Source: Mesaphorura yosii
Lineage: Eukaryota > Arthropoda > Collembola > Poduromorpha > Tullbergiidae
Direction of reading: 5' to 3'
Assembly (NCBI GenBank): GCA_009869945.1
Contig: WIXG01000181.1
Coordinates: 62,001 to 126,000 of the forward strand
Length of the DNA stretch: 64,000 nucleotides
Numbering within the stretch: the stretch's first letter is position 1; every line of letters begins with the position of its first letter. A program made the translations under genes and the position numbers. A model generated the notes under the pieces. It did not search any database, was not told where the DNA came from, and saw nothing but the letters and a program-made list of their open reading frames with translations. This document shows, one piece after another, positions 19,876-63,200 of this stretch.

Positions 19876-22800
19876 ATGATTTGCAGCTCTAAAGCTATGA
19901 GCACCATTTCATCAACTTTACGCAGTGGATCTGGCTTGCGAAAAATTTTCATTGTCACAACAAATTCGACGTCATCGAGTCACACTGGCAGTCCCACGCG
20001 CCTAAGCAGTTGCGGTCAATTTGGGCATCATCCGCGCAATCACAATCGTAAGTGAATCTCTTTGTGTTAACGACATGAACAGAATCGTGGACGTTCCGCC
20101 ACGATTTGATAGATTGAATGAGCGATCAGGTCAAAATCATGAAAGTACATGAATAGCACATGCATACAAATGTTCATTTCTGATGACGTGACGTTCGTCT
20201 AGGATTATCTTAATCTAGATTAGTATTTCTCTGAGGCACCCAACGTTTTATCCTTCCAATCGTCTGTATGGTACAATGGCATTGACCTATGACCCTCCAT
20301 TCGTTTAGTTATCACTGTCGCTTTTATAGCAATGCGTCACATACATCACTGTTTTAAATTGGAATTAGGAACTGTGCTTGATGCTGGAACTGGGCAGTGC
20401 AAAATCAAGATGTAAAAATTACGAAGGAAAGTCTTGCGGCACAGTGTTAGATAAACTAGACCTTATTCCGAGAGAAACAGAAGCCCAGCTCCTTCCGGCC
20501 GAATATTTTAAGTTCGAGTGAGAGATTCGGGGAGACACCAGACGCAAATCGGGGTCAAGGCTGATTGTGATTGCATGATTGCATTTTGCATCAATTTGGC
20601 AATGCTTATTTGAACTTATTTCGACACCATCAAATCATACACAATTACGATTTTATTTGAGCGCAGCACAAGTGAAAGGTGCTCTGTTGCTCTTATCTAC
20701 CACACCATCGCCATCGACTTGTTAATATATTCGGCTTGAAGTCGCATAAATATTCAATATGTTTGTTGTTATTCTGATAAACTCATGGTGGGAGTGTCGA
20801 ATTGATCGATGCTAGGACAACTCATTTTATTCACATCTCATGCTGGAAAAGTCATGTTCGTAAAAACTTATGTTGAAGGACGAATTATGTTCTTAAATCT
20901 CATGGTTGACTCCAAGTTATGTTCATATAAATTCATGTTATAGATTGTGTTAGACAAATGAAATATTTGAAACAATAGCAAAGAACCCGATTTTGCGATT
21001 CCTTCCATGAGTCAATAAGAAAATGGTCTCCTCTTGCTGTTTTTGCAATTTCTTGCGGAATTTCCAACTTCCCCAGATTACTTTGATTAATTGTGGACAT
21101 ACCAGCGTTCCTGGTTCGTCGGATCATTTTTTCAGGGCATCAATTTGACTTATAACATGACTTGGGGTCGAGCATGAGATTTCGATATCATGAATAGTCC
21201 AGAACATTAGTTTTTCTAAACATGAGATTTTTTATAACTTAAGTTTTTTAGCATGAGTTTGGCTGTTACGGAATTGATCATGTTCGTCGTTTATACCCAT
21301 ATCCATGCATGGCTTAATATTGCAGCAATTGCGTTACCTTTGAGGTCATTGTTCCAAGTCTTTACGAGCTTGTGCAGCTGAACAAAGGAAATACATCAGC
21401 GATTAGCGAGCACTAATTGCCATGTTATGCTATGCTGTGGTTTAGTATACAATTATCGCGGATGGCGAACCTTAAATGCCGCAATACCGCATAGTACACG
21501 TTACGGTCATCCAGTCTCAGTCAATGAACTTAATTGATGTTCAATTAAGTATGACTCCAGTTTCGGTTGATTTAGACTGTTGTAATGAGATGAATGACAA
21601 GAAATCTTATCCCAATGTTGATTGTAATTAATGTATTGTGCTTAATATAAATTTTAGACACATCCGGATGTTGTTGTTGCACGAAACGATTGTCAACGGC
21701 GGCTGGTAGCAATGGCAGAACTCAGACGGCAAACTCAATACTGCGCCAGGTCAGAGATTATGGGACTACCACGCACACCACTACTACTGGAGGCACTGTT
21801 CGCACCGGCAGCGGATCTGGTCGAGACGGATTGGCATGTCCAAGATGCGGTGATCCATGCGTGCATGTGGAAACATTTATTTGTAAGCTGTACCATTTTA
21901 TAGCACTCCTCCAACTTTATGACTAATCTAGTGTAACTTCTACAGCCTCAGCGAGATTTGTAAAATGTGATAAATGTCAGCACTTCTTTGTGGTTATGTC
22001 CGAATTCGATGGTCGAAAAAATATTCGTGAAAATGCTAGACCTGGTCCAGAGACTTCAGAATCACAACGTTTCGCCTACATTAACAACGTGCAACCTCAA
22101 CAGCAAAAGAAATCACCACCTCCGCCGAAGAAAATATTCGAGTTCCTCAACCGGCATGTAATCGGACAAGGTGATTGTGATTTGCTGAATGAGTTCTAAA
22201 TTGGTTATTATTATATTATTACTAATGTGTCCTGTGTCGTTTTAAACGACTCGTTTCTTGCAGAACAAGCAAAGAAGGTTCTTGCAGTGGCTGTCTACAA
22301 CCATTATAAAAGGCTATCAGTTAATCTTCAGAACGTTGCAGTTCCCGTACGATCATCGGAGCCGACCATCCGCAATTTAGACGGTTTTACCAATCTCACC
22401 AATTCTATTTCTACACGTAATTGTTGATTGAATGAGCCTTCATCTTTCTAATCAATCGATGCGCGCTCATTACACGAATTATTCCTTAAACGCTTCTTAG
22501 CTTGTTGAAGGAATACGTGTAGACAAATTGAAAAACTTGATGCTTACATCGCACCTTTGTCCCTGCAGATTTACTGCACCTGGGTGGTCTCGGACACAGC
22601 TCGGCACTTGGGACATTTCCACAAGGACACCAGACTCAGGGCCCGCATCACCACATTGGACCCAGCTGGGCTAATTCAGACACGTATTATGAGGGCAGAA
22701 CTCCTCGTACAGGAAATACCGGCATGAATATCAATGTCAACAATGGCCCGTCATCCACGTCTCAAAATGTGAACGGCAATCCACCCGTAAGTGGGAGCGA

Positions 22801-57780: not shown

Positions 57781-58751
57781 GTTGGGGATTTGTTTTCTAC
57801 AAATTCATTTGTTACTTCTAAATCTAACTATAAAAACTGAAGTTGGAAATAAACAATTGAAGAGATAGACTGGCCGTTTGAGCTGTGTTTTGTTGATTAC
57901 TCACGTTTTCGAGCGGCGACCATACCCTGCTGATCCCAGCTTGGAAGCCATTTTGCTTGAGATCAGGATCCTTTGATTCCTGGATCCTGGTGGTATCATT
58001 TGCAAGCGTACTATTTCTTGGCTGCTTTCTCCTCTGCACTTCGCTAATGAATTATCTCTGTTCCACTCTAATCTAGAGTAAAGAATAATATTTGACTTTC
58101 TAACTACATTGAACTTTCTTTTCTCCCAACTTCGGGCCTTCACTTTTTGCTGGCATAAATTTACATTAATCAGAATAAAAAGAAACAAAACAAACACTTT
58201 GTGCAGAGACAAGAAGTTGAAAGTTTTTGAATCAAATCCAAAATTATGCATTCGAAGAAGAGCATGGTTAAGGCACATTGAAATTCAAGTACGTTTTCAC
58301 GCATAGCGCTTTCGTGTGCCGTGCGTTCAAGCCAAGTCAAGCCAGTGAACTAATAAATTGAAAACTTCTAAATAGAGTTTTCCGTTGATTAATGACTTAT
58401 TGACTTTCAGCAAGCAATCAAGCACAATTGGAATAGCGAACAGCTGAGAGTAAAAATTAATAAAAGCAATGATCTCCAAAGATGTTTAATCACTAAATGC
58501 ATGGGTCTGGAAAGACACGAGTGAAGATTGCAGGCAGAACAGCAGTTGAACTGAAGTGGCCCTGCCAGTCAATCTGCTGCCGGAATTCCTGACAAGAAGA
58601 TAGAGGCAAGGCTATTTCAGCCTTCGTATAATTTTGGAACGATGCGTAACAAGTGCCATTAAAGTACTTTTTAACGCTACGAATTTTACGCTCATCTCGT
58701 CAAATCAAAGTGCAGCACTAGACAAATTCATTCTATTGTATTTGAGTTTCT
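57781..58751. other. Spacer between uS5 and the Merlin element
   Basis: Holds the uS5 polyadenylation signal. A minus-strand ORF at 57901-58278 has a hydrophobic internal stretch but no family resemblance or splice support. No gene called. The last 8 bases are the Merlin target-site duplication. Confidence 0.4.
58744..58751. repeat. Target-site duplication, left copy (Merlin)
   Basis: GAGTTTCT, identical to the copy at 60240-60247 on the other side of the element. Confidence 0.9.
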
Positions 58752-58790
58752 GGTAGTGCCACGATCCACTCACTACCGTGTACTGCACTG
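58752..58790 (+). repeat. Merlin terminal inverted repeat, left
   Basis: 39 bp starting GGTAGTGCCACGATCCAC and ending CTGCACTG; the right repeat is its reverse complement apart from one C/T difference. Confidence 0.93.
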
Positions 58791-58936
58791 TACTTTCATT
58801 TACATGTTCCAGTCTCTGCACTGAGACCTGTATCTGTAGGGCAAATTTACATTTATGCACTTGAGTCTCTGCATGATTCATAAAATTTCATGTTCAGTTT
58901 CACGGCGACAGTGCTACAGTATAGACCTTGTAAACA

Positions 58937-60081
58937 ATGGCTCTGACTTTGAAAACATTTTACGCTACAATAATTAAAGATGCAGAAACAGCGACAGCAT
59001 TCTTAAAAAATCGTGGGCTTCTGAGTATGAGTTTTGACGTGTGTCCAAAAGTTAAAAACGGAGTGCCATGTGGTGGAAACTTGAAGCAAATCAAACGAAA
59101 CGATCGGCCGTATTTACGTTGCACTAAACGAGGCTGCCAAGCTTACCATTCCACTCGCAAGGGGAATAAATTCTTTAGCACAACGAAGTCAACTGGAGCC
59201 GCTGCAAGTAACCTTCCAGTCGATTGTATTTTGGAGTTGGTGTTCATGTGGGTTCGACGAATAAATGCAACCATGGCACACGATTCGACCGGAAGAAGCA
59301 ACGCGACAGTTACCACTTGGTATAATCTGTGTCGTGAAGTATGCGTCTGGAAATTCCAAAAGCGCGGGAAAACGGGTGGGCCTGGGTTAATTATTCAGAT
59401 AGATGAGAGCTTATTCCAGGTATTAGTGAAGGTTCATTTTAAAGTTGTAAAATTTAGATAACTGCAATTGTACACATTGCAGGGGAAAAGGAAGTACAAT
59501 CGCGGTCGGCTAATGACTGGGGACAGGCAACCTCATAAGAGACCTAGACTAATGCCTGAGTTGGAGGTTGTGGAAGAAAATGAGGCATTATCTGACGACT
59601 CGGAAAATGACAAGGAAAATGACCTACCAGTCTTGGAAATTGAATATGACATCGCTCGAAATTATGGCAAACGCATGCAAGGGCCCTGGGTTTTTGGATT
59701 GATTTGTAAAAATACAAAGGAAGTAAGATTATTCACTGCTCAAAAACGTGATGCAGCTACTCTCATACCCATAATCGAAAGAGAAATTCAGCCTGGCAGT
59801 ACTATTATGAGCGACCAGTGGCGAGCATACTCATCTTTGAGATCACGCAATTTCGAACACCAAACAGTTAACCACTCAGAGTTTTTCATTGACCGAACAC
59901 AGGGGCTGAAACCCAGACAATTGAGTGTATTTGGAGGCATGTGAAAGCACGTTGTGGAATAAGGACAAAGGGTGCCGACCATCTTTTGGAGAAGAAGCTA
60001 ATCGAGGAATGGTGGCGAAGTTTAAATAAGCAAGACACTTTCAACAATTTTCTAAATGATGTGAAAGAATACAATTCGTAA
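58937..60081 (+). pseudogene. Merlin (IS1595-type) transposase with a frameshift
   Basis: DDE transposase. Exon 1 58937-59419; a 63-nt intron (donor GTATTAG, acceptor ATTGCAG); exon 2 from 59483. A zinc ribbon (CPKVKNGVPCGG ... CTKRGC) precedes the catalytic core: first Asp in IQIDESLF, second Asp in SDQWRAYSSL. The reading frame breaks at the short G run 59902-59905 and stops at 59942-59944. The rest of the family sequence, including the third catalytic residue (Glu in TIECIWRHVK), continues in another frame to a stop at 60079-60081. One base appears to be missing; a base-calling error in the homopolymer is possible. A charged acidic insert separates the first and second Asp. Confidence 0.9.
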
Positions 60082-60200
60082 ATATTTCCTTCTTTCGAAA
60101 ATATGAATAAAATGTCGATTTCACGAGTTAATGCAGAGAAAGCCCTAATGCAGAGACTATAAAATGCACACGAATCTTGCAAGTGCAGATACGACATAAG

Positions 60201-60239
60201 CAGTGCAGTACACGGTAGTGAATGGATCGTGGCACTACC
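60201..60239 (-). repeat. Merlin terminal inverted repeat, right
   Basis: 39 bp ending GGCACTACC at the element boundary; reverse complement of the left repeat with one mismatch. The duplication GAGTTTCT follows at 60240-60247. Confidence 0.93.
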
Positions 60240-63200
60240 GAGTTTCTCTGCTGTTTACATTTCACTCGAACACTTTTATCTTATAAAACAAATGAATGGG
60301 CATTTTTGCAGAAATAATTAGTATTACGCATTTTTGAAGTTAAACATTTGCATTTGCATTGAAGCCGAAATTCCGTATCCTCGTATAAAAAGGATTTGAT
60401 AACACATGAAATGAAAATGATAATGTACAAAGGGAATGTTATTACTGCAACCAGCTAAACTCACAAATAAAAGCTTCCTTGCAACTGGTAACTTCACAAC
60501 AACGACCATGAACTTTAAAATTATCTTTAAAATGTCAATGTTTAAATTAAATTATTAAATTAAAATTGTCGTATCCTGTGAAGATCGTCGAAGCCTTCTG
60601 TACCGGCGACTGATGATGTTCCCTGCTCAAGTTCTGTTCCCTCATCCTTCACTCCTCAGCAAACTCTTGACTTGAGTGATCATTTTCTGTGATTGTCTTG
60701 TCCCTTGTTCTGATTTAAAGGCCAGAGAGAATCGATTTCTGCTGCTGCGCCTTTTATTGCTCCTGATCACTGCTCCGGGCATTCTCTAACTCATAAACCA
60801 CCCAAACAACTGGTAATCCACGCACGCTGAAAGTTGCATTGTTTGGTGGATTAAAGCAGATTTTGGAATGCTGTCTTTATTTTTATGTATAGCTCGTCAA
60901 AGTATATAGTTTACGGAGTCTAAATTCATGTTTCATTTCATTTTCATACGCCGGAGAAGTAGAATCCCAAGCTTCACGGGCACATCTCCGGGCAGATTCC
61001 ATTGATTAAATACTTTCAAAATGACTGGCCCTGAACCGAAATCATCCGGCTGTGTGGTACCAAAATTCATGATTAATAAACTTGGAAGGAGGACGAAATA
61101 AACTGTGGACTTTATAGATCACAAACGTGGAAATGACATCGCATCGCATGCCCTAGCCTAGCATAAACTTTAGCTACCTTCAGATTTTCATTGGAAAAGG
61201 TATGAGCATGGTTTTTACGACAGTGTCGTTATTATTTTGTATTCGTATTCCAAGACCAGTCTCGATTTTCCATTATAATTTAAATCTCTTGAGATACAGG
61301 ATTACAGACAGATGTAGGGAACGCGTACAAATGTGAGGAAAGAGACTGAGTTTTATTTTGCGATGGTATTCTTGAATTAATGCTCGAGTTCGTCTTCGCG
61401 AAATCATGAAACTCAGTCGTAGAGTATAGAAAGGAATCTTCATTCCATTTACTCTCTTTGCGCTTCAAGGTTTTACTTTGTAAGTGTTGTGCATTGTATT
61501 GACAGCCCAACACCTCATTTTTTATGACTCGTATCGTATTGTGGTTTATAGCGTCGTATGACAGAATGCCAATGCCAGACGCATTATGATCTGAAATGGT
61601 GCCCGTAAACAAACAGTAGTAGTAGCAGCAAAACTTAATATTTTCCTTTTCGCATGACACAAGACAAAAATCAAAGGTGAAAGTAAAAGAAAAGGAACCA
61701 TCAATCACTGTGCACTGTACCACGCGAATTCTGTTCTGCGAGTAAAAGCATTGTATTTCATTACATCATTTCGCGTGCCTTTGATTCTTTCTTATTACCA
61801 CTCCCATTTATACTCTGCAAATTAATATTGTTGTTCTGCTGCCGCGGCTATACCGCATTTGATTCAGGAACCCGCACGCAACGCAAGACGCGCAAAACCC
61901 ATTGACCTAAAAATAGTACACGCGACTCCATTGCTACACTGGGAATTTTTGTTACGCAAATTAAACCGAAACAGCCTTAAGAAAAGAAACAACCAAATAC
62001 TCACCGAAAGAAATTCATCGCTTGCGAACTAGCGTGAACGGAACGCGAAACCATTTTAATTTTCATTTTATGTTCCTTGAGTGATGAATAGCTCGTATCA
62101 GAGAAAAAATTACTGTTAGGTTCAGATCTTGCTTCATACTCAAGGCAAAGACATGAAATGGTAATGAAAAGATTGTAATTTTCTCGTCTCATTCAAATTA
62201 TCCATCAAAACTCCTGCTCCGTTCTTTCCAGTAAATTTTATTTACATCCTATACTGCCCGAACAACGAACATGAGGCTGTTCAAGAAATGAAAACATTTC
62301 TAGTTCCTTGAAATTGTAGAATTCGTGGAATTTTTGACATGCAACGGTAATTTACTGCTGGACTAGCCAGACCAGAAGTGAAAGTTTCTGACCACAATAA
62401 CGCCCGAACTCTTTATCTTTCTTCTAGTGATTAGCACACAAAGACATGTCAAAGTGAGTCGTTCCACCATTAATGACCAGAGCGTATTGAGTTACAATTT
62501 ACATCGTTTCGTCCTTTAGATGTTATGTCTTAACGTGTGATAGGTGAATACGTCAAGCTTCATACTTTTCCGGTTGCTAGAAATTTCTCTTTCCATTTCC
62601 ATAATGCAGTTCGTGTCGACAAAACAAGATGCAGAGGAAGGAGAACAAGACATATTATGAACACCGTTGACACATTAGTTTATGTCAAGCGCTCAACCTC
62701 ACATATAATGGAGAAAGTGACTAACTGCTGCCGCTCCTGTGAAAGATTTCGACGCTCACAAAATCCAAGATTCCAAGCTCAATTTTCTATGGTATGCACG
62801 CCATTTTCTGTTTCGGCACTCGGCTTGGAACGTCGGAACTTTTTCGGAGACGGTACGTGTAAGATCAGCCCTGAATGAAGAAGCGTTCTACGGACGGAGA
62901 GTGGGTGATAGCGACAGTGAAGTTTTGTTTTGCTCGAGACAACACATCAGGGCAAATGGACAAACCAAGAAGGATTCTTTCGTGGGGAAAGATTTTCTGA
63001 ACTGAAATACTACAGAACAGTACAAAATGATTGGACTCAAGACAGACTATATCCGGGTCCGGATGATGTGTAAAGCAAAATTTCGATCCCCAAAAAATCC
63101 ATCAAACTTGCCGTTTTTAGTTGGCAACCTTTAGAAGGCAAAGAAGAAACAATTCCGGAATAAGTTAATAAAGTTACGTCTGGAATGCCAAGTTGAAATT

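What the first reader, a model, noticed from the sequence alone, without database searches (positions are those of the whole stretch)
20799..21279. Fold-back element whose arms are inverted minisatellites, in CLPX intron 1
Two arrays of seven 11-17 bp units built on TCATGTT face each other across a 205-bp centre. Units correspond in order between arms, and the whole is flanked by a perfect 9-bp direct repeat, GAATTGATC. The stem would be made of short repeats rather than one unique sequence. The 9-bp duplication suggests a Mutator-like origin. I know of fold-back elements with repetitive arms, but this specific repeat architecture is not one I recognise.
Basis: partly seen in the sequence, partly recalled or inferred. 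Interest (0 to 1): 0.7.

Follow-up and report, generated by a model that had tools for sequence, protein, structure and literature searches.

The report
Old Mutator-type fold-back transposon copy
A 463-base stretch beside the CLPX gene is an old, gene-less copy of a cut-and-paste transposon whose two ends are mirror-image rows of short repeats; elements built this way are already known in mosquitoes and root-knot nematodes, so it is a new family of a known kind.

Summary
Window 20808-21270 (463 bp) has two inward-facing arrays of about seven TCATG units (pitch 14-17 bp) around a ~205-bp centre, flanked by a perfect 9-bp duplication. It folds better than 100 of 100 shuffles. Genome searches, whose counts are lower bounds, found eight two-ended copies plus three partial ones. 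Five of eight have perfect 8-9-bp duplications at the same two boundaries, so it is a transposon. Copies differ by 10-36%; the window copy is the most divergent and codes for nothing. No coding parent with these ends was found. The same genome has 45 MULE-domain matches over cut-off; of 28 distinct loci held, 16 have inverted arms, mostly arrays of 14-16-bp units, and four of five ORFs scanned are FLYWCH+MULE proteins. Best reading: a non-autonomous Mutator/Foldback (Phantom-type) element whose arrays are transposase-binding sites; binding is inferred. Tm1 of root-knot nematodes and Muta1 of Aedes aegypti have this architecture. The fold has little covariation support.

The parts
20799..20807 (.). 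left target-site duplication GAATTGATC (9 bp)
   Evidence: perfect direct repeat; the family boundary falls exactly here
20808..20821 (+). left terminal motif (family form GATTCCAGGACAAC)
   Evidence: 28-base pattern search: 7 matches in the genome with up to 3 mismatches (window copy with 3), 0 for the reversed control
20822..20948 (+). left arm: array of seven T[CT]ATG units plus an outer TCAT, pitch 14-17 bp
   Evidence: aligned with 7 other copies
20949..21150 (.). centre, about 200 bp, no long ORF; diverged from, and shorter than, the centre of the other 7 copies
   Evidence: no BLAST match between window copy and the others here; alignment
21151..21260 (-). right arm: inverted array, five exact TCATG units and two decayed ones
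21261..21270 (-). right terminal motif (GGCTGTTACG); a ~30-nt stretch that the other 7 copies have just inside it is missing here
   Evidence: alignment; pattern search for the full right end finds 8 places, 0 in the reversed control, and neither the window copy nor C41 among them
21271..21279 (.). right target-site duplication GAATTGATC

Best explanation
A decayed, non-autonomous copy of a Mutator-like (MULE) Foldback-type DNA transposon family. SHOWN: it is an inserted element with fixed ends, different 8-9-bp duplications at different sites, and inverted arms made of ~16-bp TCATG units. [quoted passage not shown] On this reading the mirror-image layout exists because both ends must offer the same row of sites; the hairpin is a by-product. 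The copy is now inert.
For: Eight two-ended copies whose flanks are single-copy: the 16 matches of the joined-flank query are the two flanks of the eight sites themselves. Same ends with perfect 8-9-bp duplications in 5 of 8, 7 of 8 positions in one, 6 of 9 in two. The same genome has 48 PF10551 matches, 45 over cut-off. Of 28 distinct MULE loci examined, 16 carry inverted arms; mean share of 5-mer recurrences at lag 16 is 15.9% in arms and 1.5% in interiors, and the element family's arms give 16.0%. In 14 of 16 MULE arm pairs at most 4 of 200 shuffles reach the observed lag 14-17 count, against 2 of 16 interiors. Duplication candidates of 8-12 bp, some with a mismatch and at scanned offsets, were seen at 7 of 17 MULE loci. 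Four of five scanned MULE ORFs pair FLYWCH with MULE, which PMC3169594 gives as the mark of Phantom. Published Muta1 is FLYWCH-MULE, has 9 copies of a 12-bp repeat with 3-4-bp spacers and makes 8- or 9-bp duplications in yeast.
Against: No coding element with these ends or this unit was found: copies against 39 transposase loci (about 1.5 kb held on each side of the domain, so some ends are outside) gave a best BLAST E of 0.004, 18 nt and not at an end, and no nhmmer hit at E 10. ORF segments of the MULE loci found no convincing remnant inside the copies; one marginal hit lies in the centre of C278 (21 aa, E 0.006). So MULE membership rests on architecture and duplication length, not on transposase homology. 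Periodic arms are not confined to MULEs: Galileo (P superfamily) has them, and 3 of 4 Merlin loci with inverted repeats here would pass the same shuffle threshold (12-14 pairs, 2-3 of 200), with lag 14-18 shares of 13-35% against 19-54% in MULE arms. 12 of 28 distinct MULE loci showed no inverted arms in the stretch held. Binding of the units is untested.
Confidence: 0.8

Rival explanations
1. A non-autonomous element of the P superfamily, like Galileo, whose long arms also hold tandem transposase-binding sites.
For: Galileo has repetitive Foldback-like arms with multiple THAP sites (abstract of PMC3688188). The genome has 3 matches to the P-type domain PF21787, one strong.
Against: Only 3 matches against 48 for MULE. 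The one P locus fetched (L088, 1 of 3, up to a contig end) shows no inverted repeats. Galileo's duplications are 7 bp (recalled); here they are 8-9.
Confidence: 0.07
2. A non-autonomous element of another 8-bp-duplication superfamily (hAT or Merlin).
For: Four of eight copies fit 8 bp best, one of them (C13) also 9. Merlin is present: 9 matches to PF12762, 8 over cut-off, one in this window. Merlin flanks show a mild periodicity too.
Against: The window Merlin has a simple ~39-bp inverted repeat GGTAGTGCC unlike these ends. Four copies fit 9 bp better, two of them only at 6 of 9 positions. hAT was not tested.
Confidence: 0.08
3. A kept functional hairpin (RNA or DNA) in the CLPX locus rather than a dead transposon.
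For: The strand folds well (z -3.95). 13 of 97 predicted pairs have a double change that keeps the pair in at least one of the 4 copies aligned.
Against: It is the most diverged of eight dispersed copies. The covariation term is +0.19, i.e. no net support, and only 3 of those 13 pairs link the two arms' unit arrays (4 of 8 copies). No Rfam match.
Confidence: 0.03
4. A chance or local minisatellite palindrome with no mobility.
For: Arrays can arise by slippage.
Against: Same ends and different duplications at eight sites with unrelated flanks.
Confidence: 0.01

Closest known systems
Tm1 of root-knot nematodes (Mutator/Foldback, Phantom subclass; PMC3169594, passages and Discussion part 1 of 2 seen)
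   Same: 8-10-bp (mostly 9) duplications, arms of 13-15-bp tandem repeats, short terminal motifs that differ between the two ends, MITE-like decayed copies, FLYWCH-MULE transposase in the family
   Different: Different unit (TCATG, ~16 bp here) and ends; no coding member found here
Muta1 and relatives of Aedes aegypti (PMC5225508, passages and sections 10-11 seen)
   Same: 8- or 9-bp duplications within one family, 12-bp repeats with 3-4-bp spacers (15-16-bp pitch), terminal motif outside the array, many non-autonomous derivatives with varied centres; 10 of 12 long-TIR families there have such repeats
   Different: Muta1 is intact and active; its ends were not compared letter by letter with these
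Drosophila Foldback (FB)
   Same: Inverted arms of short repeats, 9-bp duplication (recalled)
   Different: Longer arms, other unit lengths (recalled); not compared here
Galileo of Drosophila (PMC3688188, abstract and outline seen)
   Same: Long repetitive arms holding several transposase sites
   Different: P-superfamily transposase; 7-bp duplication (recalled)
TU elements of sea urchin
   Same: Fold-back arms with ~15-bp tandem units and 8-bp duplication (recalled only)
   Different: Not compared; no call bears on it

Membership tests
Mutator-like elements (MULE), Foldback-type / Phantom | 8-11-bp target-site duplication, mostly 8-9 | tested here: met
   5 of 8 copies perfect 8-9 bp; 3 of 8 decayed
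Mutator-like elements (MULE), Foldback-type / Phantom | Long inverted arms containing tandem 12-16-bp units | tested here: met
Mutator-like elements (MULE), Foldback-type / Phantom | Terminal motif outside the array, unequal at the two ends (as in Tm1) | tested here: met
   GATTCC at the left, TTACG (TTACC in C48) at the right, in the alignment of 8 copies; the window copy has GATGCT
Mutator-like elements (MULE), Foldback-type / Phantom | Coding relative with the same ends and a (FLYWCH-)MULE transposase | tested here: inconclusive
   MULEs with the same architecture exist but none examined shares these ends; of 48 matched places, 30 (28 distinct) were held, with about 1.5 kb on each side
Galileo / P superfamily | P-type transposase with the same ends or repetitive arms | tested here: inconclusive
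   3 matches in the genome, 1 of 3 fetched, no inverted repeats there
Merlin | Ends like those of Merlin elements | tested here: not met
   window Merlin inverted repeat GGTAGTGCCACG; no end-like match to the 9 Merlin loci; the ends of the other Merlins were not worked out one by one
hAT | 8-bp duplication and hAT transposase with the same ends | not tested
   no hAT search was run

The most novel reading that the evidence does not exclude
In Foldback-type MULEs the pitch of the arm array (about 16 bp, one and a half turns of DNA), not its sequence, is what evolution keeps: each family has swapped the unit while keeping the spacing, because the transposase assembles as a regular row of subunits along each arm. 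The window family would be one more independent unit on that fixed pitch.
Probability: 0.3. Interest if true: 0.55.

Novelty: new member of a known kind. Interest (0 to 1): 0.3.

Why it matters
By itself it is an old, low-copy element. It is useful because this 93-Mb genome holds several MULE groups whose inverted arms are short-repeat arrays of similar pitch (14-16 bp) but different sequence. That lets one ask whether Foldback arms exist to hold a row of transposase sites, and whether spacing is conserved while sequence drifts.

Tried and rejected
Merlin as parent: the window Merlin's ends differ. An 18-nt match between two copies and the window Merlin region is weak (E 0.002-0.006) and not at an end. 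C134, C375 and C56 as coding parents: C134 has only the right end, and the MULE-like remnant beside it (L044:948-1122) lies outside the end, so I read it as one element next to or in another's relic. C375 is a ~125-bp internally deleted copy with no clear duplication (my reading). C56 is a decayed right end. No ORF segment hit inside them. TCATG-array pattern: 43 matches against 4 for the reversed control; beyond the known family it gave no parent, but only one of the other places (C668) was opened, and its inverted minisatellite has another unit. Paralogous empty site: none found (8 candidates scored). Organism: not identified; one paper search was no help.

A first period test with exact 6-mers was too strict for the window element (score 2 against a null 95th percentile of 4; the other seven copies scored 4-10) and was replaced by 5-mer recurrence. 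Bias to note: the arm blocks in which the window copy's arms look more alike than in the other seven copies (0.86, 0.76 and 0.79 against 0.55-0.66, 0.52-0.73 and 0.44-0.64) were chosen on the window copy.

Full report
OBSERVATION. The stretch is as described. The left arm has seven T[CT]ATG units from 20838 to 20933 with steps of 14-17 bp. The right arm, read inward on the other strand, has five exact TCATG units from 21256 to 21160 and two decayed ones in register. The centre is about 205 bp, and GAATTGATC flanks the whole. Inward T[CT]ATG counts are 12 against 0.72 expected, and the best of 12,568 other overlapping placements in the window gives 5. Recurrence of 5-mers at lag 14-18 is reached by 2 of 1000 shuffles in the window copy and by 0 or 1 of 300 in each of the other seven copies. 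The strand folds to -58.5 kcal/mol (z -3.95, 0 of 100 shuffles). Correspondence of units in order is weak in single copies (unit-order shuffles reach the score in 65 of 1000 for the window copy, 28 to 572 of 1000 for the other seven) and clear only in the consensus (8 of 1000).

IT IS A TRANSPOSON. Searching the window's own 93-Mb, 1127-contig genome with the element gives 16 matching segments. Searching with the C278 copy gives 13 segments, which make eight two-ended copies (window, C278, C196, C48, C141, C41, C366, C13) and three partial places (C134, C375, C56). The tool scores only its best candidates, so these are lower bounds. End patterns give 7 left ends and 8 right ends, with none for the reversed controls. 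The copies share ends GATTCCAGGACAAC and GGCTGTTACG with small variations, and their lengths are 463-762 bp. The direct repeats at those boundaries are: window GAATTGATC (9), C48 TATTTGGTT (9), C141 GGCTGGGG (8), C366 GAGGTAAA (8), C13 TCCGTGTC (8, or 9 if read GTCCGTGTC), C196 7 of 8, C278 and C41 6 of 9. A perfect match at a fixed boundary has a chance of about 3e-5 per copy on a simple four-letter count. The 16 matches of a joined-flank query are the two flanks of the eight sites themselves, so no other copy of any flank and no empty paralogue was found (8 candidates scored).

AGE AND STATE. Pairwise identity is 0.78-0.90 among the seven other copies and 0.64-0.69 between them and the window copy. 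The window copy lacks about 30 nt inside its right end and much of the centre. C41 has an extra centre insert of about 190 nt. ORF segments of the MULE loci hit no copy convincingly; the one hit inside a copy (centre of C278, 21 aa) has E 0.006. The family looks old and inactive.

WHAT MOVED IT. The genome has 48 matches to the MULE domain, 45 over cut-off. Thirty loci were cut out (28 distinct); 16 of the 28 have inverted arms flanking the domain and 12 do not in the stretch held. Many of the arms are visibly arrays: GACCGTATA units (L055, L056), TTTGCCCGACA (L047), ATGCCTCCC (L061), AGATTATTGCG (L062); 7 of 17 loci printed gave 8-12-bp duplication candidates, some with a mismatch. Mean share of 5-mer recurrence at lag 16 is 15.9% in arms against 1.5% in interiors, with a second peak at 32 (10.2%). 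The window family's arms give 16.0% and 11.0% (its eight copies are relatives, so they count as one family). Against shuffles, 14 of 16 arm pairs have at most 4 of 200 reaching the observed value (L069 13 of 200, L071 23 of 200), and 2 of 16 interiors do. The 16 loci are not independent: at blastn E 1e-10 they form two larger groups (four and six loci) and six singletons. The control is not clean: 3 of 4 Merlin loci with inverted repeats pass the same threshold (12-14 pairs, 2-3 of 200). Counts of 20 or more occur in 10 of 16 MULEs and in none of the 4 Merlins. Of five MULE ORFs scanned, four have FLYWCH plus MULE and one MULE plus SWIM. The P-type domain has 3 matches, and the single P locus fetched has no inverted repeats. 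hAT was not searched.

MECHANISM. Shown: fixed ends, duplications, inverted periodic arms, and MULEs of like design in the same genome. Inferred: a FLYWCH-MULE transposase binds the units in a row on each arm, pairs the ends and makes a 9- or 8-bp staggered cut. Muta1 produces 8- or 9-bp duplications in yeast within one family (PMC5225508, section 10), as seen here. In Galileo, further binding sites of the transposase's THAP domain were identified in the tandem repeats of the arms (abstract of PMC3688188). The hairpin as such is probably not selected: RNAalifold on 4 of 8 copies gives a covariation term of +0.19, i.e. no net support; 13 of 97 pairs have a double change in at least one copy, 3 of them in the arms.

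COMPARISON. Tm1 (PMC3169594; passages and Discussion part 1 of 2 seen) and Muta1 (PMC5225508; passages and sections 10-11 seen) have the same design: arrays of 12-15-bp units in the arms, short terminal motifs outside them, 8-10-bp duplications, FLYWCH-MULE transposase and non-autonomous copies. A survey of MULEs places Muta elements within Phantom (PMC6446971, passages). As far as tested the window family differs in its unit and ends and in having no known coding member. I searched print and their listings show nothing on this specific family; the organism is unknown to me, so that is weak evidence.

PLACE. The ORF at 22836-23219 matches a mitochondrial ClpX-like chaperone (E 3.3e-51 to 9ykx_A). 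The ORF at 21651-21926 carries a [14 protein letters not shown] stretch that I recognise from CLPX by recall; it contains no methionine, so an upstream exon is expected. The element is therefore probably in an intron, but exon 1 was not found.

VERDICT. New member of a known kind, interest 0.3. The boldest reading left open is that array pitch rather than sequence is conserved across MULE groups.

Noticed in passing
window 58752-60239, duplication GAGTTTCT at 58744-58751 and 60240-60247: A Merlin (IS1595-type, PF12762) transposon with a 39-bp, 97% inverted repeat GGTAGTGCCACGATCC and an 8-bp duplication (my reading); its transposase lies in two open stretches parted by a stop, perhaps an intron.
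   Followed up: partly
L051, L052, L053 (G000:C1031 at 1749, 5793 and 9837): Three MULE-domain matches spaced exactly 4,044 bp apart in loci of identical sequence: a tandem array of a MULE, or an assembly artefact.
   Followed up: no
L087:472-739 (G000:C668): Another inverted minisatellite, ~15-16-bp TCATGGCTTCA units facing each other, of a different unit from the window family; no duplication sought.
   Followed up: partly
L044:754-832 and 948-1122 (G000:C134): A lone right end of the window family lies about 115 bp from a MULE transposase remnant (51% identity over 53 aa to L063), outside the end: probably one mobile element inserted next to or in another.
   Followed up: partly
window 20895-20923 and 21154-21182: The window copy's right arm resembles the family's left arm (0.86) more than the family's right arm (0.73), as if the arms had been homogenised; the block was chosen on the window copy.
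   Followed up: partly
L079, L081, L083: Arms and flanks of three of four Merlin elements with inverted repeats show a mild 14-17-bp recurrence of 5-mers (12-14 pairs against about 4; 2-3 of 200 shuffles).
   Followed up: no
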